A stretch of 64,000 nucleotides of DNA from NCBI GenBank assembly GCA_964036045.1, contig OZ038391.1, positions 40,103,232 to 40,167,231 of the forward strand, read 5' to 3'. A program made the translations under genes and the position numbers. How positions within the stretch are numbered: position 1 is the stretch's first letter; each line of letters begins with the position of its first letter. The notes under the pieces were generated by a model. That model did no database searches, was not told where the DNA came from, and was given only the letters and a program-made list of their open reading frames with translations. This document shows positions 1-34,345 of the stretch, piece after piece. Source of the stretch: Eutreptiella sp. 'Long Island Sound 2002' (taxonomy: Eukaryota > Euglenozoa > Euglenophyceae > Eutreptiales > Eutreptiaceae).

Positions 1-1078
1 ACGGAGCGACTGCCTTCTACAGTGTCTGACTTAGTTCTCGACAACAAATGGAGAGGTGAATTCTTGGACCTCGTTGAGCAGCCTCAAAAGTATGGTGTGC
101 GTATCCCTGAAGGTGAACCCTAGTCGCTGCCGGCGTGGGCGCAGTTGGGCTTGGACGAGACGCCCCTCCAGTACGCCCCCAAGTTGCGCGGAGGGTATGC
201 AACCGGAGAAAAAGAGGTCAGACACTACAGCAGCGCTGACAAGCGACAGGCCACGGCCGCGCCTGTGGTCAACCGTGAAGGCATTGTAAAAGTACTACAA
301 GTGTTGCACAGAGGAAAGACAAGTCGCTGCCATGCGCGACTCGATGTGCCTCACGGCCTGCTATCCTACATGCAAGAAGACCACGCGGAGAAGAAGTGTC
401 AGACTGGCGAAACGTTCAAACGCTTGATGATCAAGGTCGACACTGAAGTGGCAAAGAACAGACGCGACCATGGCGTCGCGCAGAAGTACCCGTGTGTTGT
501 CATCATGCACTGGGTCGGAAGCCATCTCAACGACGACGAGTTGAAGCGCGTCGACGACGCTGAAATAGAGTTGGCTAACTTATACTCTTTTGTGGCGCCG
601 CCACAGATGTATGTTTTCTTTGGCCGCGCTCGTCGCAGCCATGTTAGCAATGTTGGCGATCAGGTCATCAATCCAGGCATGAGAGCATGGTTGCGCGACA
701 GACTGAAGCGTCGCCACATTGACCATTGCCTGAAGATCCACGATGGACTGCTGCCAAAGCACTCCAAGCTGGATAGCACGGAGGGTACGATGAAGGCGCT
801 CCTTGTAAGTTGGCTTATTCAATGGGCTGCATCCCCTTTGACAACCACACACGTCCTCGGCAGCTGGAACATGGTGTTTATAGAGGTGCCAGTGACAGAA
901 TGATGTGGTCCTCCCTTGATCTTCAGCAGCCATCTCCATGCCAGCACCTTTGCTGTCTGTTGTTCCTGATCCTGTTTCAGATTCAGAGGACGCCTCAGAG
1001 GCAAAGGCAGAGGCAAATGAAGCCTCTAGGCCAGAGATGGACGACAACATTGACGTGCTGTTATTCCCATGCACACCA
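1..1078 (+). pseudogene. pogo-like transposase pseudogene, DDD catalytic core (P1)
   Basis: Frame 1 reads from base 1, meets TAG at 121-123 and is then open to 900; homology continues in another frame from about 938 after small deletions. The first catalytic aspartate is kept in LDETPLQYAP (from about 150). The second, DWVGSH in copy P2, is HWVGSH here (around 507), so the triad is broken. The presumed third Asp sits in NVGDQVINPGMRAW (around 650-690). Family knowledge: DDE_1/pogo transposases cut and paste at TA sites. The coding sequence was split by insertion of element A; its last part is at 27373-27600. Dead gene. Confidence 0.85.
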
Positions 1079-1881: not shown

Positions 1882-4039
1882 CTGTGGTGGCCACCACTGT
1901 CGCATTTTCAGGAAAAAGGGATTTTTTTCTTGGCCTTTCCATGGTTTCAACATCTACTTTAAAATACCTATAGTTTCCCTCACACAGAAAAATGGTCGCT
2001 CACCATGGCTGGCGCCTTTTTGCTGCTTTGTTCGTGACATTTCCTACAGAAAGCTCAGCGCTCATGGCGCTGCAGGGGTTCCTGTGGCTTGGTTGGGTTA
2101 GTTTGGGAGCATGCCAAAACATGTGCATGTGCATCCCTCCCTCCAAGACGCAGCGCGACATAAACCCAACGCAAGACACAATATACACACTCGCATGTGT
2201 TGTCGTAAACCTGCTGGCGACCTGTGACCTGTCTTAGGGCGAAGGGAGTCGTTAAAAAAATTAAATTCCCCCTTGATGGGGTCTTGGGTTCTGCTCAGTC
2301 TCTCCAGGCTGCTGCGTTTCGGCCCAAACACGGCCTACTCAGCGAGGCTGCGCGTGGGTATCTGTACAGACAGGAATGGGAGAATTATGGACGAATCCAC
2401 GCAACCGCGAAGCGACAACACCTAAATCCGTCAAATGACGGCCTAGAATTTTTCTAAGACAACACACCTGAGCAGAATCCAATTGTGCATCAGAAGCACA
2501 TTTTTATAAAAATTAGAGTCATCTCTCGATTTTTTAAATCAAGAAATTCCTACGCATAAAAAGGCGGCGCGCAGGAGCGGCTCCTAGCGAAGCGCCGGAA
2601 AATGCAGAAATAATGAGATTATAAACGTATGTCTCACGTAACTCGGAAAATGACGAGACACACATTAATAAATAAACATACAGATTCCACCCACACTGAT
2701 AGAAGAATCAAAAATCCAAGAATTCGAAAATCAACGAAAAGACTTCAATGAATCAGGTATAAACCTCAGGTGTGCTCGTCTCGTATGCAGCATACACATT
2801 GCTCGTCTCGTGTCTCCGTGAACGAGTCCTGTGGCAGCGCTAACAAACGATGGAGGGCTAGATTAGAAAGATTGATAATGATTAGAGGTCAGATCAGGGT
2901 GATTAGACATACACACAAGTGCATAGCGACGTTTTTCGCTTGCGCCTCGTTTTACTCCTCACCTTGCTTCACTCTCCAGCGGTAGGTAAGGTAGGTAAGC
3001 CCAGGTGGGGCCACCCCCTGGTGGAGTTCGTGATTGTGGTTCAGATTGGCAGGTTTGCCAAAAAAAACTCGTCCACTCGTGCATGCTCGGGCATTCACAC
3101 ACGCATTAAAGGGTAGGCCACGCGAAATGCGCACGGTAAACCTTGTTTAGGTTACCCAGGGGCTCCTCGGTACGTTCTTTAAGAGAACCTGAGGAGTCTC
3201 TTAACGCTTGCTTGCTTGACAGGGCGTGTTTGAGGACAGTGTATTATAGGTCACACTGAGAAGCGTATAATACGTGGAGTGTGGCTTGGTTCCTCAGCCG
3301 CAAACACCCCTTCATTCGCCTTTGCTTTACAGGTGGGCAGGTAGGGTGATTGGTGCAGCAGCATACCATTTTTTTCTAGCCCTGCTAAACAAGGGCGCTG
3401 ATCACACAAACAGTTGACTGCACCTCCGCCAGGAGTGGCGAGGGCAGTTCCCCTCCATCGACATCCACGCTGTGCACGCAACCAGAGCACCCCTTCCCTC
3501 CAAGCCCTAGCAGGGGAAACGCGTTGTTGCGTCCCCTGTTAGGCCACAGTTGCTTAGCAGCGCTGTGTTCTCTTGTCTTCTTCACAGGAGGGTCATTAGG
3601 GCCCACGACGTGATCTTCAACCACACCCAGTAGAGTGTGCGTGTAGGAGTGGTAGTCCTGAGAGGGGGCTTGAGCCAGATGCAGAAGTGCTCGCCCACCA
3701 GGATGGTGCCGCTGTAGGTAGGGTGTGTAGAGTGGCGGTGTCTCCTGTCCCGCGTGCTTTTCCTCGTGGGCAGGGGAGTGCATTAGCTTTTGGCCTTTAG
3801 CAAAAATGGGCGTTTTGAATGCCCTTAGCACACTTGGCCACCCCTCCTCTCTAGTAGGTAGGGCTTTTGCCACTTCCCCCAAGGATAGGCGCCAGCACAG
3901 AAATTGGGCGCCATAGGAGTGGTACCAGTACCTGACTAGGACCTTCGGTCCGACATCAGCGAAGCCCGGTCTCCGGGAGCCACGCCCGGGAGAGAAGTGA
4001 GACACACACAGACATACGTAGCACACTTAGGGGTAAGGT
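1871..4039 (-). other. 3' non-coding region of element A, with a possible accessory ORF
   Basis: About 2.2 kb lies between the pol stop and the 3' LTR, and is conserved in B (30884-33156) and C (28787-30085 plus 41473-42428). It holds a palindrome AGGAGCGGCTCCT near 2571 and a GGTA-rich stretch near 2982-3000. An open frame at 3385-4026 (213 aa, minus) shares the block HHPGGRALL..PVKKTREHSAAKQL with frames in C (41758-42069) and D (56542-56934), while B has lost the frame. No domain is recognised. An accessory protein or simple conservation by copy descent are both possible. Confidence 0.6.
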
Positions 4040-4223
4040 TCAGTCCCTAGCTTTAGTCTTGGAGGCAAGCGTCTCAGAGAGCCTCAGCAACTCACCAAGG
4101 TTGTTCTGGGACAAGTAGTCAACCAGAACTGAGTTTAGGCGTCCCTCAGGTAGAACAAACGCAGAGAAGGGCTCCCAGGTGGCCTCTTCGACTCCAAACC
4201 CTTCCCAGAGGGTGAGGAAGCGC
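4040..4223 (-). pseudogene. Element A pol, chromodomain C-terminal piece
   Basis: This encodes the end of the polyprotein, with FLTLWEGFGVEEATWEPF matching the chromodomain core (..W.G...EATWEP..). In chromoviruses this domain steers integration to marked chromatin. The frame is separated from the rest of the integrase by insertion F; the AGCGC at 4219-4223 is the duplicated target, repeated at 15255-15259. The frame ends TKARD then stop. Confidence 0.85.
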
Positions 4224-5298
4224 ACAAAGAAAAAGAGAACTACTCGACTCCGTAGTAAGGTATGACTTGCTATAGAATATCCCCAAAATGCTTATATTTC
4301 AACTACTCAATGGTTAGCAAAACCTACAAAACAAAGATTGGAAAATGGGCTCATAAAACTAAGTAATTTTTGGGAGGGGTGCACACGAGCAAAAATTTAT
4401 CTAAAGCAATTTATGTGATTGTTTGCATAAAAATGTTTCAATTCAAAATACTCCTAGGGTCATACCCGCAAACACAACAAACAAAACTACGAGCAAGTAA
4501 AGGCGAAGGAAGGAAGATACAAAGGAAATCACCACGTGTACGTCCGAGTCATTGTTGACGATGTGGGGCCGCCGTGCCGTTGCCAAGGCCCCACCATTTC
4601 TGTTTCCCCACGGCGGCGGGTCATGGTGGCCAAGGCATTCAAGATCCTTACGGCTCTACCCCCATGGACGGAACGGGGCTCACCACGGCTCCATGCTAAA
4701 CGAAGCATGGGAGACGTGTGACACCGAACCCAATATCATGCTTGCATTACCTTTATCCTTGAGCGTAACTAAACAATAATAAACCATGCAATGGACATCA
4801 CTACGTGTAACAACCCAAATCCAAACAACAGTAAACAAACAACACATGCTTGAATGGAATGAATGCATAACAATGCAATGAGTGTAATGAAAGTATGTGA
4901 ATGCAACACATGGAAAGCGACAAAGCAAAATAGTGGTGCACCATCATGAATCTACGATTCCCACCTCGAAAGCGAACTAATCAATTGAAGAGGATAAATG
5001 TTCAATCAGAATCAAACCTAATGAATCCTTACATTCGCATGTTCGGGCGACGGCACCGCTGGCTGCAACACAGCCTAAACTAACCAATCACGATCTTTAA
5101 ACAGCACCAATATGATTACGTGACAGAATTGAATTGACTGAAAGAATTGAATGACGCACCATCCGTACTAATCGCGGCTCGAAGACGACGCGATCTGTCT
5201 GGCACTGTACTGTCCTCTGTCTGGCACTGTACTGTCTAAATCTGCAACTCAATCAGCGGAACTGTAGCGACCTTGATAGAAATCTATTTTTTTCAACT
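4224..5298 (-). repeat. 3' LTR of element F
   Basis: 1075 bp, matching 14180-15254 almost base for base. On the element strand it starts AGTTGAAAAAAATAG and ends CTTTTTCTTTGT. No coding frame is seen. A short internal duplication of CTGTCTGGCACTGTACTGTC lies near 5196-5230. Confidence 0.93.
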
Positions 5299-5309
5299 CC
5301 CCCCCAGAC
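5299..5309 (-). other. Polypurine tract of element F
   Basis: On the minus strand AGTCTGGGGGGG ends exactly at the start of the LTR. It fixes the orientation of F together with the primer site at 14168-14180. Confidence 0.75.
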
Positions 5310-5342
5310 TCTACACTGAAAGTGGGGATGTCTACAGGGGCG

Positions 5343-5759
5343 CTACACCACAGAATTCGACAGACTACCCTGACCAGACATAACAGACTGTACAGACAGC
5401 TGACTGAGGATTGACATATCATCACGCTCTGCCTTCATATCAGCGCACATCTTGTCAAAGGATGAGGCGGAGACGGGCCGGCACTTGCAGTCAACCTGCC
5501 ATGTGATGGGAGCGTACAGAGAGCAAACTGTGTTACTTTCTGATGCGCCAGTGGTGAATCCTGAGTAGAGGGCCATTTCTGAGCCCTGTCCGCGAGTGGC
5601 ATCAACCATCCTTCCGCGGACGAGGTTGGAAACATGGGCCTGTACACCAATTCGTTCGTAGGTTGTATTCCCAACCGCTGCCCAGTTGCAGAACACGCTA
5701 CCTTCAAAGAAGTCTGGTACCACCAGCTGGCGGCTCGGAAACCAACTTGCTCCAATACC
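5343..5759 (-). pseudogene. Delta-class carbonic anhydrase fragment, C-terminal exon
   Basis: The open frame runs from a splice-acceptor-like TTTCGCAG (CAG at 5760-5762) to TAG at 5343-5345, close to the polypurine tract of F. It reads GIGASWFPSRQ.., ERIGVQAHVSNLVRGRMV, SGFTTGASESNTVCSLYAPI, then TWQVDCKCRPVSASSFDKMC and ADMKAERDDMS. The block TWQVDxxC..SASSFDKMCxDM..QRDDMS is the C-terminal signature of delta-CAs (CO2 hydration in algal carbon-concentrating systems) as I know that family. Substitutions at otherwise conserved positions and a divergent tail suggest decay. It lies in the sense orientation of F. Confidence 0.8.
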
Positions 5760-5872
5760 CTGCGAAACATGTCTTTTTTTTTTTGTGAAGGGAGAACACA
5801 TGTGCAACCTGTACCATTTTTCATGTGTTCACTGGGGCTGCATCTTGTCCTTCTAGGTCTGCACTGAAAATA

Positions 5873-6013
5873 AACTGACGTCAGGCACAAGGCAACAGAC
5901 AACAGACGTCAGGCAACAGGCAGACGTCAGGCAACAGGCAGACGTCAGGCAACAGGCAACAGACAACAGACGTCAGACAACAGGCAGACGTCAGGCAACA
6001 GACAACAGACATC
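5873..6013. repeat. Short tandem repeats, CAGACGTCAGGCAACAGG-type
   Basis: Repeated, partly scrambled units of CAGACGTCAGGCAACAGG and CAACAGACAACAGACGTCAG lie between two delta-CA coding segments, so probably within an intron of the carried gene. Confidence 0.85.
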
Positions 6014-6106
6014 AGTTCTGCCAGTTGTACGCCGTGGCGCCACAGCCCAGGACAGCCTCCAACCCCGGGGGAAACCCAGTGTCATCGCCTCGCCCTGGGG
6101 CGCCCT

Positions 6107-6425
6107 CATGCGCTGTGGGCGTACAGCCACCCTCCAGCCAGGTCGGGGGTCTGGACACTGGTGGCACACCAGGGGGGTGTCGCCGGGGCTGTTACCGCAG
6201 TGGTGAACTTCGAGTCAGTTGAGTCATAGGACGTGCACGGATAACCCATCTGCTCTGAGGAAACTGTAGTACTGGGTCCGCTTCCAGTTTAGTCATACTG
6301 GCCCGCTGAATAGTGCTCAGTTCCAAGATGCCAGCTGACGTTGACTGGACACAGCTTACGCAGCACAATACCGCGTGCGGACAGTGACATGACTACAATG
6401 TTGTATGTCGGAGGATCAGGAAAAA
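6107..6425 (-). pseudogene. Delta-class carbonic anhydrase fragment, active-site region
   Basis: The minus-strand frame reads VMSLSARGIVLRKL, CPVNVSWHLGTEHYSAGQYD, stop (TAA), then TGSGPSTTVSSEQMGY and further. The block matches the delta-CA active-site region CPVNVHWHLGAEHYS..., whose histidines bind zinc. Here one His is Ser (NVSWH) and an in-frame TAA follows QYD, so the gene is dead. A possible acceptor, ACATTGTAG, precedes VMSL. It is upstream of the C-terminal exon at 5343-5759 in the correct order. Exact exon limits are uncertain. Confidence 0.7.
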
Positions 6426-8037
6426 TCAAACCGAAACAGTCTGCAATTGTAATGCTGTGCTGAGCAGCAAAAATTCTTCACAGGCATGACCTGGCCCCTC
6501 AGTCCCACTACATCTGCCTCACAAACATGTTGTCATGCATTCTTGACCACAAAGACCTGCGCAGGAAATTGACAGTCAGACAAGGGGCCCTGTGCTGAGA
6601 CAAGGCCGTGCTTGCGCAAAGAGGGGGACACTGCAGGGCCTACAAACCAATTCCGATACAGAACCAATTCTGAGAACGTCAGCTGACACTTTTGTTTGGC
6701 GATCCGCGGTCCGCCAGCTCCGGGCACTTCGGAGCTAGTCTGGGCGCCACGGTTAGTCCAGGATTGCTCCCAGGAGGGCTGGGTACACTCGGCGGACCTG
6801 AGAACAGACGGATGGCGGGGGGCATAGACAGGAGCATCCGGCACGAGAACTTTGCTGTCAAGTCCACCGACTTCTACCGACATAGGGTTATGCACTGCAC
6901 GCATATGAGAAGCATCTGTCAGGTATATACCCCAGGGGGGGGTATGCACTTGTCAAAACACTTCAAAAGCGGGGCTAACACGGGCAAAGACTTCTGAAAC
7001 ACCGAGGAAGGTGATCGCATTGACACACAGTGCCACCGCTGCCAAACTGGTCTCACAGAAAATAATGGTCCCTTACTCTACACCCTCGAGATGGTTGACA
7101 GCCCATTCACTCCACGTTGGCCTCCCCGAGGCACCAGCAGCAACCCGGCTCCACGCGTACCTCACAACTGACCGTTGGCTTACGATACTCTCTGTATGCT
7201 CACCCTGCACTGCTTTTAGCAGCGCACTGTTGCACAGCCATCAGGGAGTCCAGACCTTGGGCAGTATCTCGCAAAGAAAAATTGGACACACAAAGGTCCC
7301 ACAAACTGAACACTGCAGGACGGATGATGGTAACCTCAGACACGACAGCTGAAGACAGAGGTTCCATGAAAGCAAATTCCGGGAATTCCCAAGACACTCT
7401 CAACGGGAACCTACATCCGGATGAAAACAGACTCTATTGACAACCCACTGGTGACTGTCTGGCACTAAAGTGCAGGGGATGGCCTTTACAGACCCACAGT
7501 TTACAAACCAAGTACGACCGTACCTCTTCAGTACACTGCAGATTAACTTACAAGTCACTACTGCTGATCATCCGCAGAAGGTTGGCTAGGGGCAGGTGGG
7601 GTCTACTGAGTTGCCTGGAGACCGTTGGCGGAATACATGACCTGCAGAGTCATACCCCCCGAGGTGCAGTGGTCGCGACTCCAGGCACATGTTCGGTAAA
7701 GTGGTTGTTATCTCCCTATAGGTCCCACAGGTCAGTACGTCCCTTCCTGCTGTTGCCCTAGCCCATCCCTATCATTCTCCTAGACAGGAAATCAGCTACA
7801 AAGCCACTGAGTGCGGCAAACTTACCTCTATGTTTACACATACACTCTACCTCGAATTCACTACAAGCTGCTACTCAGTCCGGCTGCTACTCAGTCATGC
7901 TCTCACAGCGCTATAACCAGACTACCTGCAGTAGGCTGTCTTGCAGGCCTAAGGGTTTATCTGTCTGGCTGACTAAGGCTAAGCTATAGCAATACAGTAA
8001 AGTCATCTATGCTCACTAGAGTCCAGAGGTTACTCAC
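6426..8037 (-). other. F interior: no recognised gene; an open stretch at 6533-6949
   Basis: A 138-codon minus-strand frame (6533-6949) continues past its stop with plausible codons for about 30 more. It could be an upstream part of the carried delta-CA gene, but I cannot match it to the family. The rest of the interval is stop-rich in all frames, with scattered possible splice sites. Confidence 0.4.
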
Positions 8038-8660
8038 CTAGAGGCGGTTTCTGTGACACTCAGGGTTACTCGTACAATACTCCTGTAATGATACACAGTA
8101 CAGCACCCGCGGCCACAACATTGATGTTGCTTTACACAGGGGTTTCCTGTACTGGCGTTACAGCCAATATACTCAAGTACATAGTAGGCTGTCTTCACTC
8201 ACCTAGTGGTCTCCCAAGTTGGCAACCCAGGCATCTGTAACATAGGTGGTGCTTTAGTATGGCCTATGGGATATCCCATATAAGCTCACACCGTACGAGT
8301 ACTAGTCCACCCAGGGTCACAGAGACTCAGTCTGCGGGTACTCACCGGGGTATCATGTACTTCAGCTACACGAAGTAGTCAGTCACAATTGCAATGACAG
8401 AGTAGTGGCGACAGTGCCTCCCTCTGGGGCCTGTCTCAGTGTCAGGTACACTATGCCTGGGCCTTCAAACTGGCTTCCAGGGTGCTACCAATAAAATGCC
8501 TCGTGGGCTAACTAGGGAAGGTCATATCACAGCAGCCACAGGGCAGAATCATACACAGCTCCTTCAATGGTAACAGCAGACTCACTCATACACATCAGAA
8601 CTGCTATACCACCCATCTGCCCATTGTACCGACAGTATCACTACAGGGTCTAGAACAGAG
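8038..8660 (-). pseudogene. Exon-like segments with consensus splice borders, product unknown
   Basis: On the minus strand, two short stretches are bounded by textbook borders. Segment 8203-8234 (32 nt) follows ..TATGTTACAG and precedes GTGAGTGAAG. Segment 8038-8082 (45 nt) follows ..TATCATTACAG and precedes GTGAGTAACC. A larger open segment upstream (8345-8640) reads QMGGIAVLMCMSE.., FEGPGIVYLTLRQAPEGG, broken by TGA and TAG, and ends at CCCG|GTGAGTACCC. They may belong to the carried carbonic anhydrase gene or to another captured gene; the product is not recognised. The splice borders are the evidence here. Confidence 0.5.
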
Positions 8661-11600
8661 TGATTCAGAAAAGCAGGCAACACAGCCATTCCTGTAACCC
8701 ACAGATAAACAAACGTTTCCCAACACGAAACCAATCTACCCCATATAGCGGGGGTGTCGCCAGGGCTTCCCACTCCTGACGGAGGGCCAACCTGCCCATG
8801 GTTGGGGAAAAAAATAGAAATACGGAGAGTGACACAGAGGAGAGAAAAACAGTCGTCACTACATCCCGTAAGACCTTCAGCCCTGCGGCACAAGGACGGG
8901 CCTGAGGTCACACCAAACCAGCCAATCACCCACAGCTAGGTTTAAGGGGGACAACAAAGAAGGTATTTTCTGCATGAAACATCAACGCAAGGAGCCAAGA
9001 AAACAGAGAGGCCTCCTCCAATCAACACCTGTTTAGGATTAGAAATAATTGTCTCTTCCCAAATGCCATAGCTGGGCCCTACAGACGGAAGACAATACAC
9101 CGAAGAACGTCACACTGGGGTGCGGCAGCATCAGACTACAGACTACAGACTTTTGACTCCTAGAGCTCAGACCGTCCTAAGGTGCCACTGAGTTGCATTA
9201 GTGCCACTGCGACTGACACTCCAGGTGAACACGCAGTACATCACAGTAGAACTAACCGTGTAGCTACTGTTACATTCCTGAATAGCTTCAGTAGACACGG
9301 CTATGACCGTAATCATCGGAGTGACTAGGGGTATTACTATCAACCCAAAGTTCATCTCTCGCATACGAACTAGTAAACTCAGTCACCTGTAGGGTATCAC
9401 TAACCTCTGGACTTCTATTACAGTCAACTGTCATACTACCTGCATCACACTAGGCAGTTACCAGCTATCCTCGTATCAGACGAAGGTACAGACAGTAAAC
9501 CAAATCTCTGGCTTCTTCCGGACTCAGGTACGGGGAAGGGTCGTCATTCGTCCAGTCACAGACGGCCTTACCCTGAGGGCATGACCATCCTCAGGGTCAC
9601 GAATGATTAATGCATAGCTAGGTACTCCCTCACATTACACGCAGACACAGGCGAGAATGACACTGATTTTTGTGCCAACGACAGGGAAGTAAGCAGGTAC
9701 AAAACACTCTACACGCAACTAAAATTGAAACTTCATACCACTTCCATACCACTGCACGAAAGGCAACGACGTCTCCATGCACTGACACCGTGGAGAACGC
9801 CGCAGCGAACTTGCCACTGGCATTCCAGCCAACAAGGCGTCAGGCAGAGAGAACGAGGTCGCGCGGTCCTGCAGAGTGCAGGCTAACGGGTTGGCCAGCT
9901 GACTCGGATACAGCGGTCGCTCAGACTGGCTCTCGGTCACTGCCACCACGGATACAACTGCCTGTCACCGGTTGGCGCCAGCTAACAGGGCCATAAACCA
10001 AACAGGCCAAATGCCCATTGAGATGCAGATGGCTGTATGACATGGGTCAACTATGGGTTAGTGTGGCGTATCGCCTGGTGCTGCAACCGGAACGACGGAT
10101 CAGGTCAACGACAAACAATCAACCACAACCAAGACACAGACAGGCAGACCAACTGAAAGACTGGCTGATTGCAGAAAGGCAGAAAAATGGGAGACACCTA
10201 TTCAACAAGAAGCACTCGCTGACTTGCAACTAAACTAACAGGCTCAAAACAACACTACACAATCACAGCGAACTCTCCCCCCCACAGGGGAAGCCAATGT
10301 CTTGCGGGGGTGTTTGCTCTGGGTACCTCTCGTGACGCAGAACACGCGCGCACAGGTACTCACGCACACACACACCCTGGCTGGCATACGTAGACACAAG
10401 CAAACAATCGCCAGCACAGTGAGACCGACACCATCAGAGTGTCGCCTCAAACATCCCCCTGGCCTCGAATCGGCAAGACCTGTATTCGCCACCTCAGGGC
10501 TGACAACGGGGTATCAATGTAACTGCATCGCACTCACAGCAGTACACGAGCAATGAATCTGTTCACCTATACACCTCCTATACAACCGCGCATCAGCACA
10601 CCACGGACATGACACGGGGCACTCTGTATCCTACAGACTACCATCACCAGACAAACTAGCTGGGTACTGTTCATCTCACTGTGTGTATTCACCTGAGTCA
10701 TAACCGCCGGTTACCTAAAATTCAGCTAGTAAACCTATATCTGTATCTCCGTCATAGTACGTTACATGGCAAGGAGTTCTCATTTACATAGGATACTCCC
10801 TATCTCACGGATCAGGTCATATCCTCTAAGTATCACTCCTAAGTAAACGTACGCGTAATACACCGTAACTACATCAACCTGGGCTGCAGCGGAGTTTTCT
10901 CTAAAAACAGTAACTCACTCCTGAGCTGCTATACAGCTGCTATACAGATTTTTGCTCGGTGGGTGATCTACACCCTCGTGGTAATACCGGTTGCTCTGGT
11001 CACACTCGGTGGCACTCACAGTGGCACACACTCTATGGACTATGGGATGGACACAGGTCGAACTCCTACATAGACATCAACACCTTCGATACTTGCAGTT
11101 ACCCCAGAATCCCCTCCAGTACCCTCTCTCAGAACTAGAAAGAAAAATGGGCACCCTGCTTCACGGCCGGCAGCTGCTGAGCGTCGATGGACTTTGTAAG
11201 TGAACCAGGAATGGAAGGTTCTCGAGCACCAGACTATCTGCATTACTGGCACTGGTATCGGTTTCCCAGCAGGCTCAAGTGACAGGGCGTACACAGACGA
11301 AGGTTGGCAAAGGATCGCAGATACTGGAGCACCAACCCTGTTGAGCTGTTCATACAACCTGCAAATGCCTTGATGTAAAGCCTTTAACCTCCTGAGTGCA
11401 CATCTAACAAGCGAATGTCTGTTACCAGGATCTGGGGCAGGAAAGGGATACAGAAACATCAATGACGCAAGGTGCATTCGGCATAACTACAGCTGCAAAG
11501 GAATGTGACCAAACCAGAGCAAGCACGCTGCTCTCCGTCAGGGCACACGTTACCCACAGAATATTCCTTCATGAAGAATCCAGTCTTGATGAAATGAGAG

Positions 11601-12024
11601 AGGGGAACAGAAGCAGGAACGAAAGAAGCGCAGGGTTAGAATCAGGCACACTTGATTGATTGGCGCCCAAGCGAAGCGCCCACGCAAGCACCGAGTGTAT
11701 GAAGGGGGGATGGTCTCCTGGCACAGAAAATGCGTACCGGAGAGCTGATTTTTCGTAACCCCCCGCCCCTCTGGCTTGGCGTTACCTATCCTAGCGGAAG
11801 GAAATTCCCTTTAACTGGCTTGCCGAATTTGGCAGCCCAAAATGAGGGCAAAGGGCCCCCAAAATTTTAGCCAGAAAATAGGCAGGGTCTGGCAGGGGTG
11901 CCTGGGCTAACCCATAGGGGTGCCCGGGTGACGTGCGAAGTCCATGTTGTCCTCTGGGGGATACAGGTGCACTGAGCACCTGATGGTCGGGTCACCCTCT
12001 TGTTGTCCATGGGGCCCCAGACCT
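8661..12024. other. F interior, unassigned
   Basis: No product recognised. Minus-strand open stretches at 11040-11477 (145 aa) and 8582-8929 (115 aa) have splice-acceptor-like sequences within them (TTCCTTTGCAG, TCCTGCCCCAG) and are probably exon/intron mixtures. Several GTGAGT donors on the minus strand (near 9383, 10357, 10548, 10916, 11014) continue the pattern of an intron-containing insert. Confidence 0.35.
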
Positions 12025-12470
12025 TCACGTCCTTCTCGCCTGTGGTGCCAGCCATCGCCCAGCAGGAGGGCAGGACGAAGTGGCAGCAGCCAGACCAGGC
12101 TTCCGAACCAAGAAAGACATCACCTGCACCTGCTTGACGGAGTCATAGGCAGCTAATCGGATGCACCACTGAGGGTAGCCCTTGCAGCCATCCTTGGCCT
12201 CGTGCAGCGCCTGGCTGGCCTCAGTGCAGCCGATCTTCGTTGGCGTCAGTGCACGCGCCCGTCGCTGGCGTCAGTGCAGGCGAACTTGGGCAGCATCAGT
12301 GCAGGCGGACCTGGCTGGCATCAGTGCAGATGGACCTGGCTGGCATCAGTGCAGATGGACCTGGCTGGCATCAGTGCAAGCAAACATGGGCAGCGTCCAC
12401 ATGGTCCTGTACGGGTCGTCATAATAACCAGCGGCTGCGCCAGGGAACCGCACTGTGTTTTTGGGAGCGC
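12025..12470 (-). pseudogene. rbcS: RuBisCO small subunit (rbcS) fragment with an expanded internal repeat
   Basis: After an acceptor-like TGTTTCCGCAG (CAG at 12471-12473) the frame reads [36 protein letters not shown]. After the repeat array it resumes TEASQALHEAKDGCKGYPQW, CIRLAAYDSVKQVQVMSFLV, RKPG. These are the conserved C-terminal blocks of the RuBisCO small subunit ([20 protein letters not shown]; YIRLxxFDxxKQVQxMxFLV). The second half is well preserved. Changes such as NRYW to DPYR and the 25-bp repeats, which create stop codons, make it non-functional. The N-terminal half (transit peptide, first exon) is not found. A nuclear rbcS implies a green-lineage plastid. Confidence 0.88.
12226..12375 (-). 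repeat. 25-bp tandem repeat inside the rbcS fragment
   Basis: Six consecutive 25-bp units, ACTGATGCCAGCCAGGTCC plus ATCTGC on the minus strand, are followed by the original unit that leads into SQALHEAK. The first units are nearly identical and the later ones diverged. Six units make 150 bp, so the rbcS frame is restored after the array even though each unit shifts it. Confidence 0.9.
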
Positions 12471-13304
12471 CTGCGGAAACAAGCACCGTGCTCTGTCCAG
12501 TGCATAATCAAACACCTGTCAATCGTAAATGGATGGCTCATGGATCCTCCGAAGGCCAAACCTTTTCGGTGTGCACTGGAAATTGCTGATCGCACTAGGA
12601 CACAAGCAAACGGTCTCCGATCACCCAATGCTACGCACAGTAAGCTGAATAAGGCGCTCGGCCGAATTTCCAAGCGAACCCACACCCGGGGTTGGTCTGG
12701 ACCACAGTAAACAAGAAAGCAAAACGAATAACCAAATCCACCGACACGGCAAACCAAGGTGAGGGCAACCTGGACGGTAGCGACGGTACATAAAGGCAGA
12801 TGCATAAAAAAAAAAAATACCAAGTCAATATACACTAGTACACTGATGGGACTAGGTAAGGAACTTGACTGGTAAGACAGCGTACCCAACGTAGGCAATG
12901 TAACTAAACCAAGTACAAACGTAGTAGGACTGTAGGCATACATTATTACTAAAAATCATACAATCCACAAACAGTCCTAAACCAGTGAATATGGCGCCTC
13001 ACAGCCATCCAGGTACATCGGATTGTATCTTACCTTGAGTTCTAGGTATACGGTAGTAAAGCTAACTACATGCGTATCATCGCAAGAACTGTGCATCATC
13101 TAATCAAAATACACCGCTGGACTGGAGGTTTGCTCGTACTCACCTACGCAAGAGTGAACGCAAACTCCTCCACACACGAGTGTACTCCTCACGTGCCAGC
13201 ACATATCCACGCACGCACCGAGAAGTGGCATTCCACCCCACATTCTCACACCCGTGCCCGTACACACACAAATTCTCCCTTTGGCCACATGGCCTGAAGA
13301 GGCG

Positions 13305-13725
13305 TCATGCCCAGCAGCAAGGCAAGGGCGATGGCGCGGAGGAGGATGAGTCATCGTTCATATCGGCCTGCTCGTCGGTCTTCGTGAGGGTCTTTGCAAT
13401 CAAGTCTATGACGCCCACATTGCGAGTAGGAACATGGGGAGCGATACCGTTCAACTCGCCCCCCGACTAAGGCAGCAGGAGAACGAAGGCTTCGGTGACT
13501 TCTATGAAGTTGGGCACGATGTTCATAGTTCCAACACGGTCACGGAGTAAATCAGAGTGACGGCCGTCCAAGATCATCTTGTCTCCATTGTAGGAGTGAA
13601 TGGTGGTCATGGTACCGTACTCAATGCCGAAGTTCTCACCCAAAAGCTTGCAAACACCGAACGTTCCGTTGGTGAAGCATGAAGCGTTGGAGATAGTGGT
13701 GTCGAAGACTTCGTGGTCGATGGGG
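13305..13725 (-). pseudogene. Glyceraldehyde-3-phosphate dehydrogenase fragment, catalytic domain
   Basis: The minus-strand frame reads DHEVFDTTISNASCFTNG, then FGIEYGTMTTIHSYNGDKMI, LDGRHSDLLRDRVGTMNIVP, and after a TAG (13467-13469) continues in frame with GELNGIAPHVPTRNVGVIDL. These are GAPDH landmarks: catalytic Cys in SNASC(T)TN, TTIHSYTGDQ, DLRRAR, NIVP, LNGIALRVPTPNVSVVDL. Active-site neighbours are altered (FTNG for TTNC; FIEVTEA for STGAAKA), so the copy is dead. It has the same orientation as rbcS and delta-CA in F. It cannot be assigned firmly to the plastid or cytosolic isoform. Confidence 0.88.
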
Positions 13726-14167
13726 TGATGGAAAACAAGGAAAACAAGACAAGCAAGGACACAACGGAACAAAAATTTACGGGATAAAATTTTCCCAAAA
13801 ATGTTTAACATCCTATGGGAAACCGAGACACAAGAAAGCACGACAAGTGGGGCTTGGGAATCCCCGGGGCTAGTCACCAAGGGGCCCGGGTGACTCCACC
13901 GGTCCTTGGCAACTCTTGGCGATGTCCAAAGTGTCAAAGGGGCATGCTTGCATTTCTTGCAGCACCCAAGCGGAGGTGCGCCTTTGTTTTTATTTTTGAA
14001 GGGGGCCCAAGCGCAAGCGCCCGGTAGTCCGTGAGGAAGAAGGAAAGGGAAGCAAAGCAAGACTCAACAACCCATGGCAAAGCAAGAACCGCTTGCTCGA
14101 AAAGAGCATTTCCGGAGTCGGCGCAAGAAAGTCCTAAAATTTGTTGGCTTGCCACAAAATTAGGAAA
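13726..14167 (-). other. 5' leader region of element F
   Basis: Between the primer site and the GAPDH fragment, a minus-strand frame is open from 14060 but gives no recognisable product before the GAPDH homology. No gag is seen. Confidence 0.5.
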
Positions 14168-14180
14168 CGCTCTGCTACCA
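14168..14180 (-). other. Primer binding site of element F
   Basis: TGGTAGCAGAGCG on the minus strand begins at the inner edge of the 5' LTR. It resembles the complement of the initiator-methionine tRNA 3' end (TGGTAGCAGAGG in several eukaryotes). The chromoviruses here use a similar site, TGGTAGCAAGAGGCAG. Confidence 0.7.
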
Positions 14181-15254
14181 CAAAGAAAAAGAGAACTACT
14201 CGACTCCGTAGTAAGGTATGACTTGCTATAGAATATCCCCAAAATGCTTATATTTCAACTACTCAATGGTTAGCAAAACCTACAAAACAAAGATTGGAAA
14301 ATGGGCTCATAAAACTATGTAATTTTTGGGAGGGGTGCACACGAGCAAAAATTTATCTAAAACAATTTATGTGATTGTTTGCATAAAAATATTTCAATTC
14401 AAAATACTCCTAGGGTCATACCCGCAAACACAACAAACAAAACTACGAGCAAGTAAAGGCGAAGCAAGGAAGATACAAAGGAAATCACCACGTGTACGTC
14501 TGAGTCATTGTTGACGATGTGGGGCCGCCGTGCCGTTGCCAAGGCCCCACCATTTCTGTTTCTCCACGGCGGCGGGTCATGGTGGCCAAGGCATTCAAGA
14601 CCCTTACGGCTCTACCCCCATGGACGCAACCGGGCTCACCACGGCTCCATGCTAAACAAAGCATGGGAGACGTGTGACACCGAACCCAATATCATGCTTG
14701 CATTACCTTTATCCTTGCCCGTAACTAAACAATAATAAACCATGCAATGGACATCACTACGTGTAACAACCCAAATCCAAACAACAGTAAACAAACAACA
14801 CATGCTTGAATGGAATGAATGCATAACAATGCAATGAGTGTAATGAAAGTATGTGAATGCAACACATGGAAAGCGACAAAGCAAAATAGTGGTGCACCAT
14901 CATGAATCTACGATTCCCGTCTTGAAAGCGAACTAATCAATTGAAGAGGATAAATGTTCAATCAGAATCAAACCTAATGAATCCTTACATTCGCATGTTC
15001 GGGCGACGGCACCGCTGGCTGCAACACAGCCTAAACTAACCAATCACGATCTTTAAACAGCACCAATATGATTACGTGACAGAATTGAATTGACTGAAAG
15101 AATTGAATGACGCACCATCCGTACTAATCGCGGCTCGAAGACGACGCGATCTGTCTGGCACTGTACTGTCCTCTGTCTGGCACTGTACTGTCTAAATCTG
15201 CAACTCAATCAGCGGAACTGTAGCGACCTTGATAGAAATCTATTTTTTTCAACT
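14180..15254 (-). repeat. 5' LTR of element F
   Basis: 1075 bp, the partner of 4224-5298. It ends at the AGCGC duplication (15255-15259), after which the integrase frame of A continues with the Gly-Trp-Arg codons. Confidence 0.93.
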
Positions 15255-16264
15255 AGCGCCAACCCTGGCGATAGCGGTGGCGTAGGACAGACTTCACCAG
15301 GTAGAAGCCCTCCTTAGCCATCTCCTCAGCGTTCATGTCGGGGAGTTCCCCTTCAACTTCCATAGGGCTGGCAGCCCCTTGTAGGTCCAGGACAGCGATT
15401 TCCTCGTCGTTCAGCTCCCACTCCTCCCCACAGAGGTCTTCAGGATCATAGTAGCGCTTCAGGTGTTGAGCAGCGCACACCAGGGTTCCCCGTAGACGGG
15501 GAGAACACCGCACGGTGATACGGTGTCCATCCACTGATAGAATCTTGTACGGCCCGAAGTATGGGTCATCGCTGGTAAAGCGTGGCCAGGCGGGTAGTCG
15601 ACTGTGGTGCACCAGCACCCAGTCCCCCTCTTGGTAGGTGGCCGGTACTCGGTGCTTGTTCTTCTTGTTCCACTGACGCTCCCTCACTCTCTGGAGCATA
15701 GCCTTGGCCTTGTCCACCTTCGCTGGTTGCTCTTCGACCCATTCACCCACAGAAGAATGGGTGTCCTCTGGATAGGGGGCATGTAGGAACCATGCCGGGC
15801 GCCCTAGGAATAGCTCATGGGGCGAGTAGCCAGTAGCTGAACTCTCTTGGGAGTTCATCATCAAGGATATGATGGGGAGTAGTCTCACCCAGTCTCTGGT
15901 GCGCTCAGGTTTGCACCATATCCTTACATTCTCCTTGAGGACACGGATCTGTCGCTCACATAGGGGGTTGCTCGTTTGCGAGTAGGGGATCCCCGTAGAC
16001 ACCTGGACATTGAGGGATCTCAGGACTCTCTTGTACCAACCGGTATCTGAGCGTACTCGTACGTCCTCATCGGAGTTGATCTCCTTGGGCGCCCCATAGA
16101 CACAAAAGCCCTCCTCCAGGAGTATCTTGATAGTCTCCTCCCCGGTAATGTGCTTGGTACATGGGAACACCCTGGTAAACCTGGTCGACCCACAGGTCAC
16201 CACGAGGGCAAAGTCATAGCCCCCGAACTTCGGCATCTCCGTGTAGTCCACGTATAGAACACTG
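15255..16264 (-). pseudogene. Element A integrase core and C-terminal domain
   Basis: The frame 15255-16251 starts at VDYTEMPKFGGYDFALVV (first catalytic Asp), includes EINSDEDVRVRSDTGWYKR (second Asp) and NPLCERQIRVLKENVRIW (Glu), then the basic C-terminal region and the first part of the chromodomain (GFYLVKSVLRHRYRQGW). It is cut by F exactly at the AGCGC target. The frame is offset by one base from the upstream RNase H/zinc-finger frame because of an extra base near 16293 that is shared with B but absent from C and D. Confidence 0.9.
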
Positions 16265-17320
16265 TTAGCACAGTGAGGGATGGGCAGGGTCGAAGTGGAG
16301 ACCTCTGTCCCTGATATCCCCTGGTTTGCAGGACCTGCACGGGCACTTGTCCACGATAGGCTGGAGGGTTTTCCACAGTTGGTCGTCAGTCCACGTAGTG
16401 TGGAACCACTGCTTGAACAGCCTCAGGGTACGGTCAGCACCCACATGACCGCTGGACTCATGGGTCCACTTCAGCAGCGCGGGGACTCTGTCACTAGGCA
16501 CCACGATACGGTCCTCGTGCCAGAGGTAGCTCTTGTCCCTCTTCCACTGATCTTGGTTGACCAGGAGGGGTTCAAGGCATTTCTCCAGGCGCTTGTAGAT
16601 ATCCCCAAACTCCTTCAGGTACTCCGATTGTTGGAGTCCATCCAGGGGGCGTATCATCGTCATGTTCAGGTCCAAGTGGACGTCCATACGGCTGAACGCC
16701 TCCTTAGCCAGCGCTTCAGACCGCGCACCAATCAGGGCGTCGAAGTTGTTGCGGCTGATGTAGTCTGCACACTCGTTCTTCACTCCCTGGATATGGTGTA
16801 CCGTCAGCCGTAGTTGACTGAGGTAGTTCCACCAGCGCCGTAGCTTGGCCTTCTCAGGTGGGGGGCCCTTCTGGAAACTGCGGACCGGTTCTTGGTCGCA
16901 CAGCCAGACCACAGGGTTACTCCCCAACAATCGTGCTTGTGAGGATAGCACCAGCATACCCGCGAGCAATTCCTGCTCATAGGTGGAGTAGTTCCCCCTG
17001 GCCTGGTTCCACTTCCAGTTCCAGTGGCCCAGAGGTACTAAGACCCATTTGTCGTCAGGGTAGCTGTGCTTGAGGGTTCCATCTCGGTTGAGACCTTTCG
17101 TCCCCCATTGGGAAATCGCCGAGTCGAACTCCTCCTTCTCTAGTGCTTGCCATTGGAACAACGTTCCACCACCGCCCACATTGCTGGCGTCGGTCACCAG
17201 GATAATCTCCCCTTGTGCCCTAGGCACGCCCAAGCACTTAGCGTTGGCCACCTTGTCATTGAGTTCGTCAAACGCGTGTTGCTCTTGTGGGCCCCAGCGC
17301 CAAGTAGTACTCTTCTTGAT
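16265..17320 (-). pseudogene. Element A RNase H and integrase zinc finger
   Basis: RNase H shows ILVTDASNVGGGGTLFQW, YSTYEQELLAGMLVL, WLCDQEPV and NECADYISRN, keeping the four acidic residues. The integrase HHCC finger follows: HESSGHVGADRTLRLFKQWF.. and CPCRSC. The frame stops at 16265-16267 after HFDPAHPSLC, before the integrase core, because of the extra base. The first 111 bp (17210-17320) are the duplicated target of L1, repeated at 18510-18620. Confidence 0.9.
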
Positions 17321-30085: not shown

Positions 30086-30883
30086 AGAAAAGTTTATAGT
30101 GTTTTCAGCACTGTGTTTTTGCTTCTCCTGCTGCTTGTTGTTGCTGTAGGGTGTCCTGCTGCTGGTTTTGGATGATGAAAAGCTTTTGTTTGTTGAAATA
30201 CAGTAAAGCCAAGTCAATCCAGGATAGCCCAAGCCAATAGTATGCAAGGAGAAGGTAATTCAGGATCAAAGCATGAAGGGCTGCAGTGTAAACAGTGAAA
30301 GATGATTGGATATTCACAGAAACTGCAACTCAGGTCACAAATGAATGCATATTCACAAAGATAGCTGAAATGTTTTAGGAAAAGAGTTAGAAAACTGCCT
30401 CAGGATCACTCTCTCTCCATAGTGCCATCTTAGGAGATGTGCACTCTTTGTTCTGGGTCCCATATGTGCTGAGGTGGCATGGTATGTGGCGATGAGGTCA
30501 CTGCCATGTCACATGGGATCTTCCTACTTAGCTAGGCTGACCAGGAATTGAACCCAGGACCTCTCAAAAAGAGCTGCCCAGCCCCCTAGGGTGCATACCA
30601 CTAGGATAGCTAAGAATTCATGGAAAAACATAGATAAATTCATAGGCTCTACTTTAGGTATGTCAGTGCTCAGTCAACTCAGGAAAAGATGTTTCACCTC
30701 TGATTGAAAGGGGATTAAGGGGTCCACTCCATATCCTGATTGGGTGTTTGGTTCCATAGGTCAAAATGTGTTATCACCAGTTTTGGTGGGACCAATACTA
30801 AGATCAAAATGCATGGATGCTCAGTGCATCTCTAATACAACTAGAGTATGCCTCAAAGCAATGGAAAAGCACTTTTTCTTACT
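30086..30883 (-). repeat. 3' LTR of element B
   Basis: 798 bp; element-strand ends AGTAAGAAAAAG..CTTTTCT; tRNA-like segment 30527-30614; polypurine tract immediately upstream (30884-30894). Confidence 0.93.
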
Positions 30884-33156
30884 CCCCCCTTGTGCTGTGG
30901 TGGCCACCACTGTCGCATTTTAGGAAAAAGGGAATTTTTCTTGGCCTTTCCTTGGTTTCCACATCTACTTTAAAATACCTACAGTCTCCCTCACACTGAA
31001 AAATGAGCGCTCACCATGGCTGGCGCTCTCCTGCTGCTTTGTTTGTAACATATCCTACAGAAGACTCAGCGCTCATGGCGCTGCTGGGGCTCCTGTGGCT
31101 TGGTTGGGTTAGTATGGGAGCATGCCAAACATGTGCATATGCATCCCTCCCTCCAAGACGCAGCGTCGACACAACCCAAACGCAAGACACATTATACACA
31201 CTCGCATGGGTTCTCGTAAACCTGCTGGCGACCTGTGACCTGTCTTAGGGCGAAGGGAGTCGAAAGAAAATTAAATTTGCCCCTTGGTGGGGTCTTGGTT
31301 CTGCTCAGTATCTCCAGGCACCTGCGTTTCGGCCCGAACACGGCCTACTCAGCGAGGCTACGCGTGGGTATCTGCAGAGGCAGGAATTGGAGAATTATGG
31401 ACGAATCCACGCAAAAACGAAGCAACGCCACCAAAATCCGTCAAATGACGGCGTAGAATTTTTCTGAAACGACACACCTGAGCAGAATCCAATAGTGCAT
31501 CAGAAGCACATTTTTATAGAAATTATAGTCATCTCTGAATTTTTTCAATCCAGAAATTCATACGCATAGAATGGCAGCGCGCAGGAGCGGCTCCTAGCGA
31601 AGCGCCGGAAAATGGAGAAATAATGGAATTATAAACGTATGTCTCACGTAGTCTTGAAAATGACGAGACACACATTAATAAATAAACATACAGATTCCAC
31701 CCACACTAATAGAAGCTTCAAAAATTCAAGAATTTGAAAATCAATTAAAAAGACTTCAATGAATCAGGTATAAACTACAGGTATGCTCGTCTTGCATGCT
31801 GCATACACATTGCTCGTCTCGTGTCTCCGTGAACGAGCCTTGTAGCAGCGCCAACAACGATAACAACGATAGGACGCGATAGAGGGATTGATTAGAAAGA
31901 TTGCAGATGATTAGCGGTCAGATCAGGGTGATTAGACATACACACAAGTGCATAGCAACGTTCTTCGCGTGCGCCCCTTTTGTCCTCTCACCTTGCTTCA
32001 CTTCCCAGCGGTAGGTAAGGTAGGTACGCCCAGGCGGGGCCACCCCCTGGTGGAGTCAAGATTGACGCGTAGATGGGCAGGTTTACCCACGATCCTGTCG
32101 CATACTCGTGCATGCACACACGCATTAAAGGGTAGGCCACGCGAAGTGCGCACGGTAAACCTTGTTTAGGCTACCCAGGGGCTCCTCGGTACGTTCTTTA
32201 AGAGAACCTGAGGAGTTCCTTAACGCTTGCTTGCTTGACAAGGGTAGCTGCTCCATGCAGCGTGTTTGCGGACAGCGTATTATAGGCCACACTGAGAAGG
32301 GTATAATACCTTGAGTGTGGCTTGGTTCCTCCGCCGCAAACGCCCTTTCATTTGCCTTTGTTTTACAGGTGGGCAGGTAGGGTGAGTGGTGCAGCAGCAT
32401 TTTTTTTTATGCCCTGCTAAACAAGGGCGCAGATCACACAAACAAGTAACTGCGCTCCGCCTGTGGCAGAGCAGGGAGTCCGACTTCATCGACATCTGCG
32501 CCTTGCACGCGAGAGCACTCCTTCCCTCCAAGCCCTAACAGGGGAAACGCGTTGTGGCGTCCCCTGTCAGGCCACAGTTGCTTAGTAGCGCTGTGTTCTC
32601 TTGCCATTTCACAGGAGGGTCGCTAGGACCCAAGAGACCTTCATCTTCGCAACGCCCAGTAGAGTGTGCGTGTAGGAGTGGTAGTCCTGAGTGGGGGCTA
32701 GAGCCAGCCGCCCAGTGCTCGCCCGACAGGATGGTGCTACTGTAGGGTGTGTAGGACCTGTAGGGGGTGTGTCACTGTCCCACCCTTTTCCTGCAATTTT
32801 AGCGGGGTTGGTCGGCTGTGGCAGTGGTTAGGTCAGTGTTTTGGCCACATAGCAAAACGGCGTTTTGCATGCCTTCATAGCTTTTGGCCACCCCTCCCTG
32901 TAGTAGACAGATAGGTAGGGAAAACAATACCTGGATTAGCACGCTGGGTATTCCCCCAAGGCTTTGCGCCAGCACAGAGATTGGGCGCATAGGGGAAGGG
33001 AGACCCGGGGCGTACCCCGTGGCATCAATAAGCCAACCCTCCAGGTTTAGCAAGGGCGCAGACTTGGGTATAATTAGGACACCACTTCTGCGGCTTGCTC
33101 TCAGGACCTTAGGACTAGCACACTCACACATACGCTTTGGCAGGTAAGGGTAAGGT
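30884..33156 (-). other. 3' non-coding region of element B
   Basis: 2.27 kb matching A and C, with the same palindrome (about 31583) and GGTA-rich stretch (about 32008-32022). The accessory frame conserved in A, C and D is broken here. Nothing else is recognised. Confidence 0.8.
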
Positions 33157-34345
33157 TCAGTCCCTAGCTTTAGTCTTGGAGGCAAGCGTCTCAGCGAGTC
33201 TCAGCAACTCACCAAGGTTGTTCTGGGACAAGTAGTCAACCAGAACTGAGTTTAGGCGTCCCTCCAGTAGAACAAATGCAGAGAAGGGCTCCCAGGTGGC
33301 CTCTTCGACTCCAAACCCTTCCCAGATGGTGAGGAAGCGCCAACCCTGGCGATAGCGGTGGCGTAGGACAGACTTCACCAGGTAGAAGCCCTCCTTAGCC
33401 ATCTCCTCGGCGTTCATGTCGGGAAGTTCACCTTCAACTTCCATAGGGCTGGCAGCCCCTTGTAGGTCCAGAGCGGCGATTTCCTCGTCGTTCAGCTCCC
33501 ACTCCTCCCCACAGAGGTCTTCAGGATCATGGTAGCGCTTCAGGTGTTGAGCAGCGCACACCAGGGTCCCCCCTAGACGGGGAGAACACCGCACGGTGAT
33601 ACGGTGTCCATCCACAGATAGAATCTTGTACGGCCCGAAGTATGGGTCATCGCTGGTAGAGCGTGGCCAGGCGGGTAGTCGACTGTGGTGCACCAGCACC
33701 CAGTCCCCCTCTTGGTAGGTGGCCGGTACACGGTGCTTGTTCTTCTTGTTCCACTGACGCTCCCTCACTCTCTGGAGCATAGCCTTGGCCTTGTCCACCT
33801 TCGCTTGTTGCTCTTGGACCCATTCACCCACAGAAGAATGGGTATCCTCTGGATAGGGGGCATGTAGGAACCACGCCGGGCGCCCCATGAATAGCTCATG
33901 TGGCGAGTAGCCAGTAGCTGAACTCTCTTGGGAGTTCATCATCAAGGATATCACGGGGAGTAGTCTCACCCAGTCTCTGGTGCGTTCAGTTTTGCACCAT
34001 ATCCTGACGTTCTCCTTCAGGACACGAATCTGTCGCTCACATAGGGGGTTGCTCGTGTGAGAGTAGGGGATCCCCGTAGACACCTGGACATTGAGGGATC
34101 TCAGGACCCTCTTGTACCAGCCAGTATCTGAGCGTACTCGTACGTCCCCATCGGAGTTGATCTCCTTGGGCGCCCCATAGACACAAAACCACTCCTCCAG
34201 GAGTATCTTGATAGTCTCCTCCCCGGTAATGTGCTTGGTACATGGGAACACCCTGGTAAACCTGGTCAACCCACAGGTTACCACGAGGGCGAAGTCATAG
34301 CCCCCGAACTTCGGCATCTCCGTGTAGTCCACGTATAGAACACTG
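33157..34345 (-). CDS. Element B integrase core and chromodomain (needs a frameshift to join pol)
   Basis: The 391-codon frame begins at VDYTEMPKFGGYDFALVV. Catalytic residues of the DDE integrase: Asp in VDYTEM, Asp in NSDGDVRV, Glu in NPLCERQIRVLKEN. A basic C-terminal domain follows, then a chromodomain near the end (GFYLVKSVLRHRYRQGW, FGVEEATWEPF). In C and D this region is continuous with the zinc finger; in A and B an extra C (CACTTCGACC against TACTTGACC, around 34371-34376) puts it one base out of frame. It has no good start of its own, so it is either a frameshift-expressed part of Pol or a recent lesion. Confidence 0.88.

What the first reader, a model, noticed from the sequence alone, without database searches (positions are those of the whole stretch)
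4224..15254. An LTR element without gag/pol that carries fragments of three carbon-fixation genes
F has paired LTRs, a primer site, a polypurine tract and an exact 5-bp target duplication, yet its interior holds sense-oriented pieces of GAPDH (13305-13725), rbcS (12025-12470) and delta carbonic anhydrase (6107-6425, 5343-5759). All three act in CO2 fixation or concentration. Gene capture by LTR elements is known, but three functionally linked fragments in one non-autonomous element would be unusual. Highly expressed photosynthesis genes may simply be captured more often.
Basis: partly seen in the sequence, partly recalled or inferred. Interest (0 to 1): 0.88.

Follow-up and report, generated by a model that had tools for sequence, protein, structure and literature searches.

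The report
Algal retroelement carrying carbon-fixation gene pieces
In a large euglenid-type algal genome, a family of mobile elements that seem unable to move by themselves carries decayed pieces of up to three genes for fixing or concentrating carbon dioxide; a maize element with pieces of three host genes is known, but three from one pathway is unusual.

Summary
F is a clean LTR insertion on the minus strand: 1,075-bp LTRs (15 differences), tRNA-iMet-type primer site, polypurine tract, exact 5-bp duplication, and an uninterrupted copy of the target in the same window. Of 96 reading frames scanned, only three gene families were convincing: GAPDH, rubisco small subunit, delta carbonic anhydrase; no gag or pol. 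The host looks like a euglenophyte; the GAPDH is closest to its plastid gene. Intact parents lie at separate loci, so bulk transfer is rejected. F belongs to a dispersed family: 19 of 148 GAPDH rows have RbcS and delta-CA downstream in F's order. Of five other copies read, all have RbcS and delta-CA, two have GapA. LTR pairs differ by 0-15 bases, so transposition was recent, presumably in trans. A related repeat shares the delta-CA capture, but its RbcS (one copy read) fits another polyprotein unit. The one control answered, PGK, shows mostly clustered genes and at most three dispersed fragment copies. Most likely: occasional capture of abundant mRNAs during reverse transcription, then decay. 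Known kind (Bs1 of maize), unusual variant. Whether the shared pathway means anything is untested.

The parts
14180..15254 (-). 5' LTR (sense AGTTG...CTTTGT, 1,075 bp)
4224..5298 (-). 3' LTR, 98.6% identical to the 5' LTR (15 differences in 1,073)
4219..4223 (.). target-site duplication AGCGC, copy beyond the 3' LTR
   Evidence: empty site at 33336-33340
15255..15259 (.). target-site duplication AGCGC, copy before the 5' LTR
   Evidence: empty site at 33336-33340
14169..14180 (-). primer-binding site TGGTAGCAGAGC, tRNA-iMet type (tRNA identity recalled, not searched); shares the last LTR base
5299..5310 (-). polypurine tract directly before the 3' LTR
13365..13703 (-). decayed fragment of plastid GAPDH (GapA), residues 362-474 of the 552-aa L010 frame, one in-frame TAG
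   Evidence: Pfam PF02800 1.2e-10; 80.6% nt over 341 bp, no gap, to host L010
11996..12462 (-). decayed RbcS fragment spanning a unit-linker-unit junction of the host polyprotein
   Evidence: Pfam PF00101 4.5e-8; 87% nt over 237 bp to the C11 array
12207..12406 (-). 25-bp tandem expansion inside the RbcS fragment; not a multiple of 3, breaks the frame
6197..6354 (-). delta carbonic anhydrase, N-terminal piece
   Evidence: 93.0% nt over 158 bp to host L070; PF10563 E 0.0067
6038..6196 (-). about 160-bp insert in the delta-CA, in all 8 distinct F-family copies whose held DNA reaches it, absent from the two host genes read
6013..6037 (-). short delta-CA piece (25 bp) between the two inserts
5721..6012 (-). 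insert replacing about 78 bp of delta-CA: short tandem repeats, a 3'UTR-like stretch, an A tract of variable length
5412..5720 (-). delta carbonic anhydrase, C-terminal piece with a 33-bp deletion
   Evidence: Pfam PF10563 1.6e-7

Best explanation
F is a recent copy of a non-autonomous LTR retrotransposon family in a euglenophyte-like alga. Shown: LTRs, primer site, polypurine tract, 5-bp duplication, an empty site, no recognisable gag or pol in the frames scanned, dispersed copies, young LTR pairs, and three decayed host-gene pieces, sense to the element, in the same order in 19 loci. Inferred: an unidentified autonomous element supplies gag, reverse transcriptase and integrase in trans; during reverse transcription the enzyme sometimes switched to co-packaged host mRNAs, so pieces of abundant plastid-enzyme messages (GapA, RbcS, delta-CA) were joined to the element at different times; the chimeras were amplified and the pieces decayed as passengers. 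That the captured genes belong to one pathway is best read, provisionally, as a result of mRNA abundance.
For: Anatomy and empty site. Three gene families in 96 frames, no gag or pol. Parents unlinked: GapA on C9 and C3, RbcS arrays on C11 and C14, 26 strong delta-CA rows; the parents read are uninterrupted over the captured parts. Copies: 40 of 40 scored LTR matches (of 1,128 candidates) at 98-100% identity; 19 of 148 GAPDH rows used have RbcS and delta-CA downstream on the same strand, 51 of 148 at least one. Recent activity: LTR pairs of six copies differ by 15, 9, 13, 3, 1 and 0. Decay: F-type and L021 GapA against the host gene dN/dS 0.63-0.84, with a stop; frame-breaking repeats in RbcS. 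mRNA origin: intronless parents, and a 3'UTR-like stretch with an A tract inside the delta-CA in 12 of 12 loci searched, 8 distinct copies.
Against: As the parents read are intronless, absence of introns in the pieces does not separate mRNA from DNA capture. The A tract may belong to a later insert of another retroposon. Expression of host genes or of F was not measured. In one copy (L039/L040) the upstream LTR is itself preceded by a polypurine tract, so it is not a simple single insertion.
Confidence: 0.68

Rival explanations
1. DNA-level capture: pieces of the three genes entered the element by recombination or break repair with chromosomal DNA, not through mRNA.
For: The pieces are short and their ends irregular; the delta-CA is broken by two inserts. 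The parents read are intronless, so a DNA copy would look the same.
Against: All three pieces are sense to the element (1 in 8 by chance); a 3'UTR-like stretch with an A tract lies inside the delta-CA. Neither is decisive.
Confidence: 0.2
2. The pieces are kept because they act: element RNA homologous to carbon-fixation mRNAs affects those genes by RNA silencing or competition, or an in-frame fragment is translated.
For: Three genes of one pathway, all sense. In the related family the GapA frame is open in five of seven copies and pairwise dN/dS is 0.35-0.85 over 21 pairs.
Against: F-type GapA has a stop and near-neutral dN/dS; the RbcS frame is broken; the seven related copies were the best scorers, a biased sample, and many lower rows hold a stop; three of five other F-family copies read lack GapA and have the most similar LTR pairs.
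Confidence: 0.1
3. Bulk transfer of one host region in which the three genes were neighbours.
For: Constant order GapA, RbcS, delta-CA in 19 loci.
Against: The intact genes found lie on different contigs or far apart; identity to the host genes read differs (80.6%, 87%, 93%); a related repeat has the same delta-CA capture with an RbcS that fits another unit.
Confidence: 0.02

Closest known systems
Bs1 LTR retroelement of maize
   Same: One LTR element with pieces of three different host genes, none full length (PMC13317346, passages).
   Different: Bs1's genes are an ATPase, a xylan endohydrolase and a glucanase, not one pathway; its pieces formed a chimeric reading frame, F's frames are broken; F is from an alga.
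Gene-fragment-bearing LTR retrotransposons of maize (425 elements, at least 189 captures)
   Same: LTR elements that took up and amplified host gene fragments (PMC2774510, passages).
   [quoted passage not shown] F has three.
LARD-type large non-autonomous LTR elements (recalled, no paper read)
   Same: Long LTRs, long interior without gag or pol, mobilised in trans.
   Different: LARD interiors are recalled as non-coding, without host gene pieces.
Pack-MULEs and gene-capturing Helitrons (review passages)
   Same: Mobile elements that collect pieces of host genes.
   Different: DNA elements; F has LTRs, a primer site and a polypurine tract.

Membership tests
LTR retrotransposon | paired direct LTRs around an interior | tested here: met
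   1,073 aligned bases, 98.6% identical
LTR retrotransposon | primer-binding site after the 5' LTR and polypurine tract before the 3' LTR | tested here: met
   in F and, where the locus held shows that side, in other copies (L046 shows a partial LTR match only); the tRNA itself was not searched
LTR retrotransposon | short target-site duplication at an otherwise intact site | tested here: met
   AGCGC on both sides; uninterrupted copy of the target at 33145-33635
LTR retrotransposon | own gag and pol | tested here: not met
   no gag or pol family in 96 of 178 frames, 69 of 79 on the sense strand; hence non-autonomous. A gag unknown to Pfam would be missed
Non-autonomous element mobilised in trans (LARD-like) | many structurally similar copies without pol | tested here: inconclusive
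   copies. The interiors of the five other copies were aligned to F and searched for GapA, RbcS and delta-CA, not scanned for pol
Non-autonomous element mobilised in trans (LARD-like) | autonomous partner sharing LTR ends, PBS and PPT | tested here: inconclusive
   none in the window; no genome-wide search made
Bs1-like transducing LTR element | pieces of several unlinked host genes inside the LTRs | tested here: met
Bs1-like transducing LTR element | pieces lack the introns of their parents | tested here: inconclusive
   the parents read are themselves uninterrupted over the captured parts
Bs1-like transducing LTR element | expressed chimeric reading frame | not testable with these tools
   no transcript data; frames broken in F

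The most novel reading that the evidence does not exclude
A lineage of euglenid LTR elements repeatedly and preferentially takes up CO2-fixation genes: RbcS twice from different polyprotein units, GapA possibly twice, delta-CA once before two repeat families split, partly at one slot behind the leader. Such preference would point to selective packaging of plastid-enzyme mRNAs, perhaps where they are translated, and the element RNAs might in turn influence host carbon fixation.
Probability: 0.1. Interest if true: 0.8.

Novelty: new variant of a known kind. Interest (0 to 1): 0.55.

Why it matters
A recently active LTR family holds pieces of up to three genes of one pathway, with intact parents in the same genome. 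That makes it testable how retroelement particles come by host mRNAs: by abundance, by place of translation, or by sequence.

Tried and rejected
Chance similarity: rejected by Pfam and NCBIfam. Bulk transfer: rejected. Rfam on 3000-16500: no match. PDB sequence search with the delta-CA piece: no match. One GapA capture shared by F and the related family: same slot and flanks, but the tree does not resolve it (all element copies held together is not rejected, p-AU 0.453) and shared derived sites are 8 against 4.9 expected, p 0.12, so one or two captures remain possible; my note that shared changes show one capture is withdrawn. Intron reading of the 160-bp delta-CA insert: folding no better than shuffles, z 0.02. 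Unknown segment in place of GapA in L045: no Pfam match in ten frames except one at E 0.091. Interior of the related family: 148 of 177 sense frames of 62 aa or more scanned; weak PEPCK hits (Pfam 1 member, 7e-4; NCBIfam 2 members, best 0.0031), not located and not claimed. Controls LHC (PF00504) and actin (PF00022) did not complete.

Because of the PGK point I lowered the novel reading from 0.12 to 0.10.

Counts: one search used 148 of 150 GAPDH rows, 125 of 156 RbcS matches (24 rows of the two intact arrays left out, the rest not listed by the tool or not typed) and 75 of 114 delta-CA rows (26 strong host-gene rows and 13 second pieces of listed copies left out). The window's own RbcS row is not among those listed, so the counts are lower bounds.
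Full report
What it is. F lies on the minus strand at 4224-15254. Its LTRs (4224-5298, 14180-15254) differ at 15 of 1,073 aligned bases. A primer site complementary to a tRNA-iMet-type 3' end (recalled) follows the 5' LTR, a polypurine tract precedes the 3' LTR, and AGCGC is duplicated on both sides. F sits inside a reading frame with an integrase core match (15253-16422, E 4.3e-7, just below the curated cut-off); the same target is uninterrupted at 33145-33635, and the two flanks overlap there by exactly five bases. This is a clean insertion.

What it carries. Of 178 stop-to-stop frames of at least 40 aa that overlap F (79 minus, 99 plus), 96 were scanned with Pfam and NCBIfam: 69 minus and 27 plus. 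Only GAPDH, RbcS and delta-CA were convincing; the remaining families had E above 0.005. No gag, reverse transcriptase, integrase or RNase H was found in them; 72 plus-strand and 10 minus-strand frames were not scanned, and Pfam may miss a euglenid gag. Each gene is broken: GapA has an in-frame stop, RbcS a 25-bp tandem expansion, delta-CA two inserts and a deletion.

Host and parents. The genome is 2.28 Gb. Its RbcS is a polyprotein of linked units, as described for Euglena (PMC4938576, passages), in two arrays of 10 and 14 matched units on C11 and C14. Its plastid GAPDH is 97% identical to a protein of sources jgi and lgn and 75% to EukProt 'EG_transcript_8042', a name that I take, from recall, to be Euglena gracilis. 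So the host is most likely a euglenophyte other than E. gracilis; this is inference. F's GapA piece matches the plastid gene (80.6% over 341 bp, L010; 80.4%, L011); of seven GAPDH loci held (L009-L015) no other matched at that setting. RbcS is closest to the C11 array (87% over 237 bp). Of 26 strong delta-CA host rows two were read: C3 matches F at 93.0% over 158 bp, C6 at 85.5% over 83 bp. The parents read are open frames across the captured parts.

Family. The LTR search scored 40 of 1,128 candidates, all 98-100% identical. Of 148 GAPDH rows used, 51 have RbcS or delta-CA on the same strand within 15 kb and 19 have both, in the order GapA, RbcS, delta-CA (lower bounds). Five other copies were read, each from two separate stretches (L039-L048): five of five hold RbcS and delta-CA; two hold GapA; three have an unknown segment in its place behind a leader 86% like that of a related family. 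LTR pairs of the six copies differ by 15, 9, 13, 3 (of 1,051), 1 (of 989, partial) and 0 (of 1,051) bases. In L039/L040 the upstream LTR is itself preceded by a polypurine tract, so its value of 9 may not be an age. The family moved recently although F lacks pol; mobilisation in trans is inferred.

Related families. A second family (L016-L020, L026, L027) shares the LTR end, leader and slot with F and holds another, overlapping part of GapA; LTR ends at both sides were seen in one copy only (L031/L032). Whether GapA was captured once or twice is undecided. A third repeat, found through RbcS rows that hold a TGA, has RbcS 2.5-2.8 kb before delta-CA in 8 of 11 copies paired; it is not shown to be an LTR element. 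Two of its delta-CA stretches (L072, L073) share 9 base changes with three F-family copies against the C3 gene, 0.8 expected by chance (5,000 draws, none as high), and 25 against 3.3 for the C6 gene. At three of the nine sites the C6 gene has the same base, and 24 host rows are unread, so an unsampled parent remains possible; one shared capture is the simplest reading. Its RbcS (one copy, L071) fits another unit: at sites that separate two unit types, F matches type 1 at 14 and type 2 at 1 of 20, L071 matches type 2 at 17 and type 1 at 8 of 27. Shared RbcS changes between F and L071 are 4 against 2.3-2.7 expected with type 1 units as parent (p 0.21-0.30) and 8 against 3.5 with type 2 (p 0.03). 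I read this as two captures; one long capture with different losses is not excluded.

How it works, most likely. Reverse transcriptase from a helper switches between packaged RNAs; a review describes such switching between unrelated packaged RNAs (PMC13317346, passages). Pieces of abundant mRNAs are thus joined to the element and amplified. Evidence for mRNA is moderate: sense orientation of all pieces (1 in 8 by chance), intronless parents, and a 3'UTR-like stretch with an A tract within the delta-CA in 12 of 12 loci searched, which are 8 distinct copies; the tract could also come from a later retroposon insert.

Control. PGK, another Calvin-cycle and glycolysis gene, gave 62 matches with all 56 candidates scored, against 262, 330 and 221 candidates for GAPDH, RbcS and delta-CA. 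Most PGK rows are exons of clustered genes. Against a clean contrast: three loci on C12, C17 and C21 share one truncated layout (residues about 4-122, in C12 from 36, and 334-379) and may be a small dispersed fragment group; their surroundings were not read. So dispersal in the tens is not found for this gene, but a low level of it may be. One control cannot decide between abundance and preference; LHC and actin did not complete.

Selection. F-type and L021 GapA compared with the parent gives dN/dS 0.63-0.84; the related family's copies give 0.68-1.02 against the parent and 0.35-0.85 among themselves (21 pairs), with an open frame in five of seven (simple counting without a transition correction). 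Those seven were among the best scorers, so the sample is biased. I read the pieces in F as decaying passengers.

Against what is known. Bs1 of maize holds pieces of three host genes (PMC13317346, passages). [quoted passage not shown] F is therefore a new variant of a known kind. Interest 0.55: the single pathway and the likely second capture of RbcS are striking, but abundance of these mRNAs is a sufficient and untested explanation.

Noticed in passing
G000 C3:186856641-186905054, C6:130782258-130875116, C20, C23: Intact delta carbonic anhydrase genes are strongly multiplied, mostly in local clusters: 26 strong rows, 25 of them over nearly the whole domain.
   Followed up: partly
L045 about 1790-2660 and the matching place in L008, L043, L044, L047: An unknown segment takes the place of GapA in a subfamily of F; no convincing Pfam match.
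   Followed up: partly
G000 C12:45045415, C17:19816738, C21:31845921: PGK matches with the same truncated layout at three loci; possibly another dispersed gene-fragment group.
   Followed up: no
G000 C1:62116451, C5:132228019: RbcS domains in open frames of 293 aa outside the two arrays; single genes, retrocopies or pieces in other elements.
   Followed up: no
L029, L031, L033, L035, L037 interiors: Weak PEPCK hits in one (Pfam) and two (NCBIfam) of 148 frames; not located.
   Followed up: partly
window 6038-6196: About 160-bp insert in the delta-CA with CCAC at both sides and complementary ends, reminiscent of euglenid nonconventional introns (PMC6221363, passages); folding is not better than chance.
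   Followed up: partly
window 30086-41473: An element with 799-bp LTRs (98.9% identical) and reverse transcriptase and RNase H domains, Ty3-like by recall; its LTR does not match F's.
   Followed up: partly
window 124-903 and 53915-55456: Related long frames without a Pfam match.
   Followed up: no
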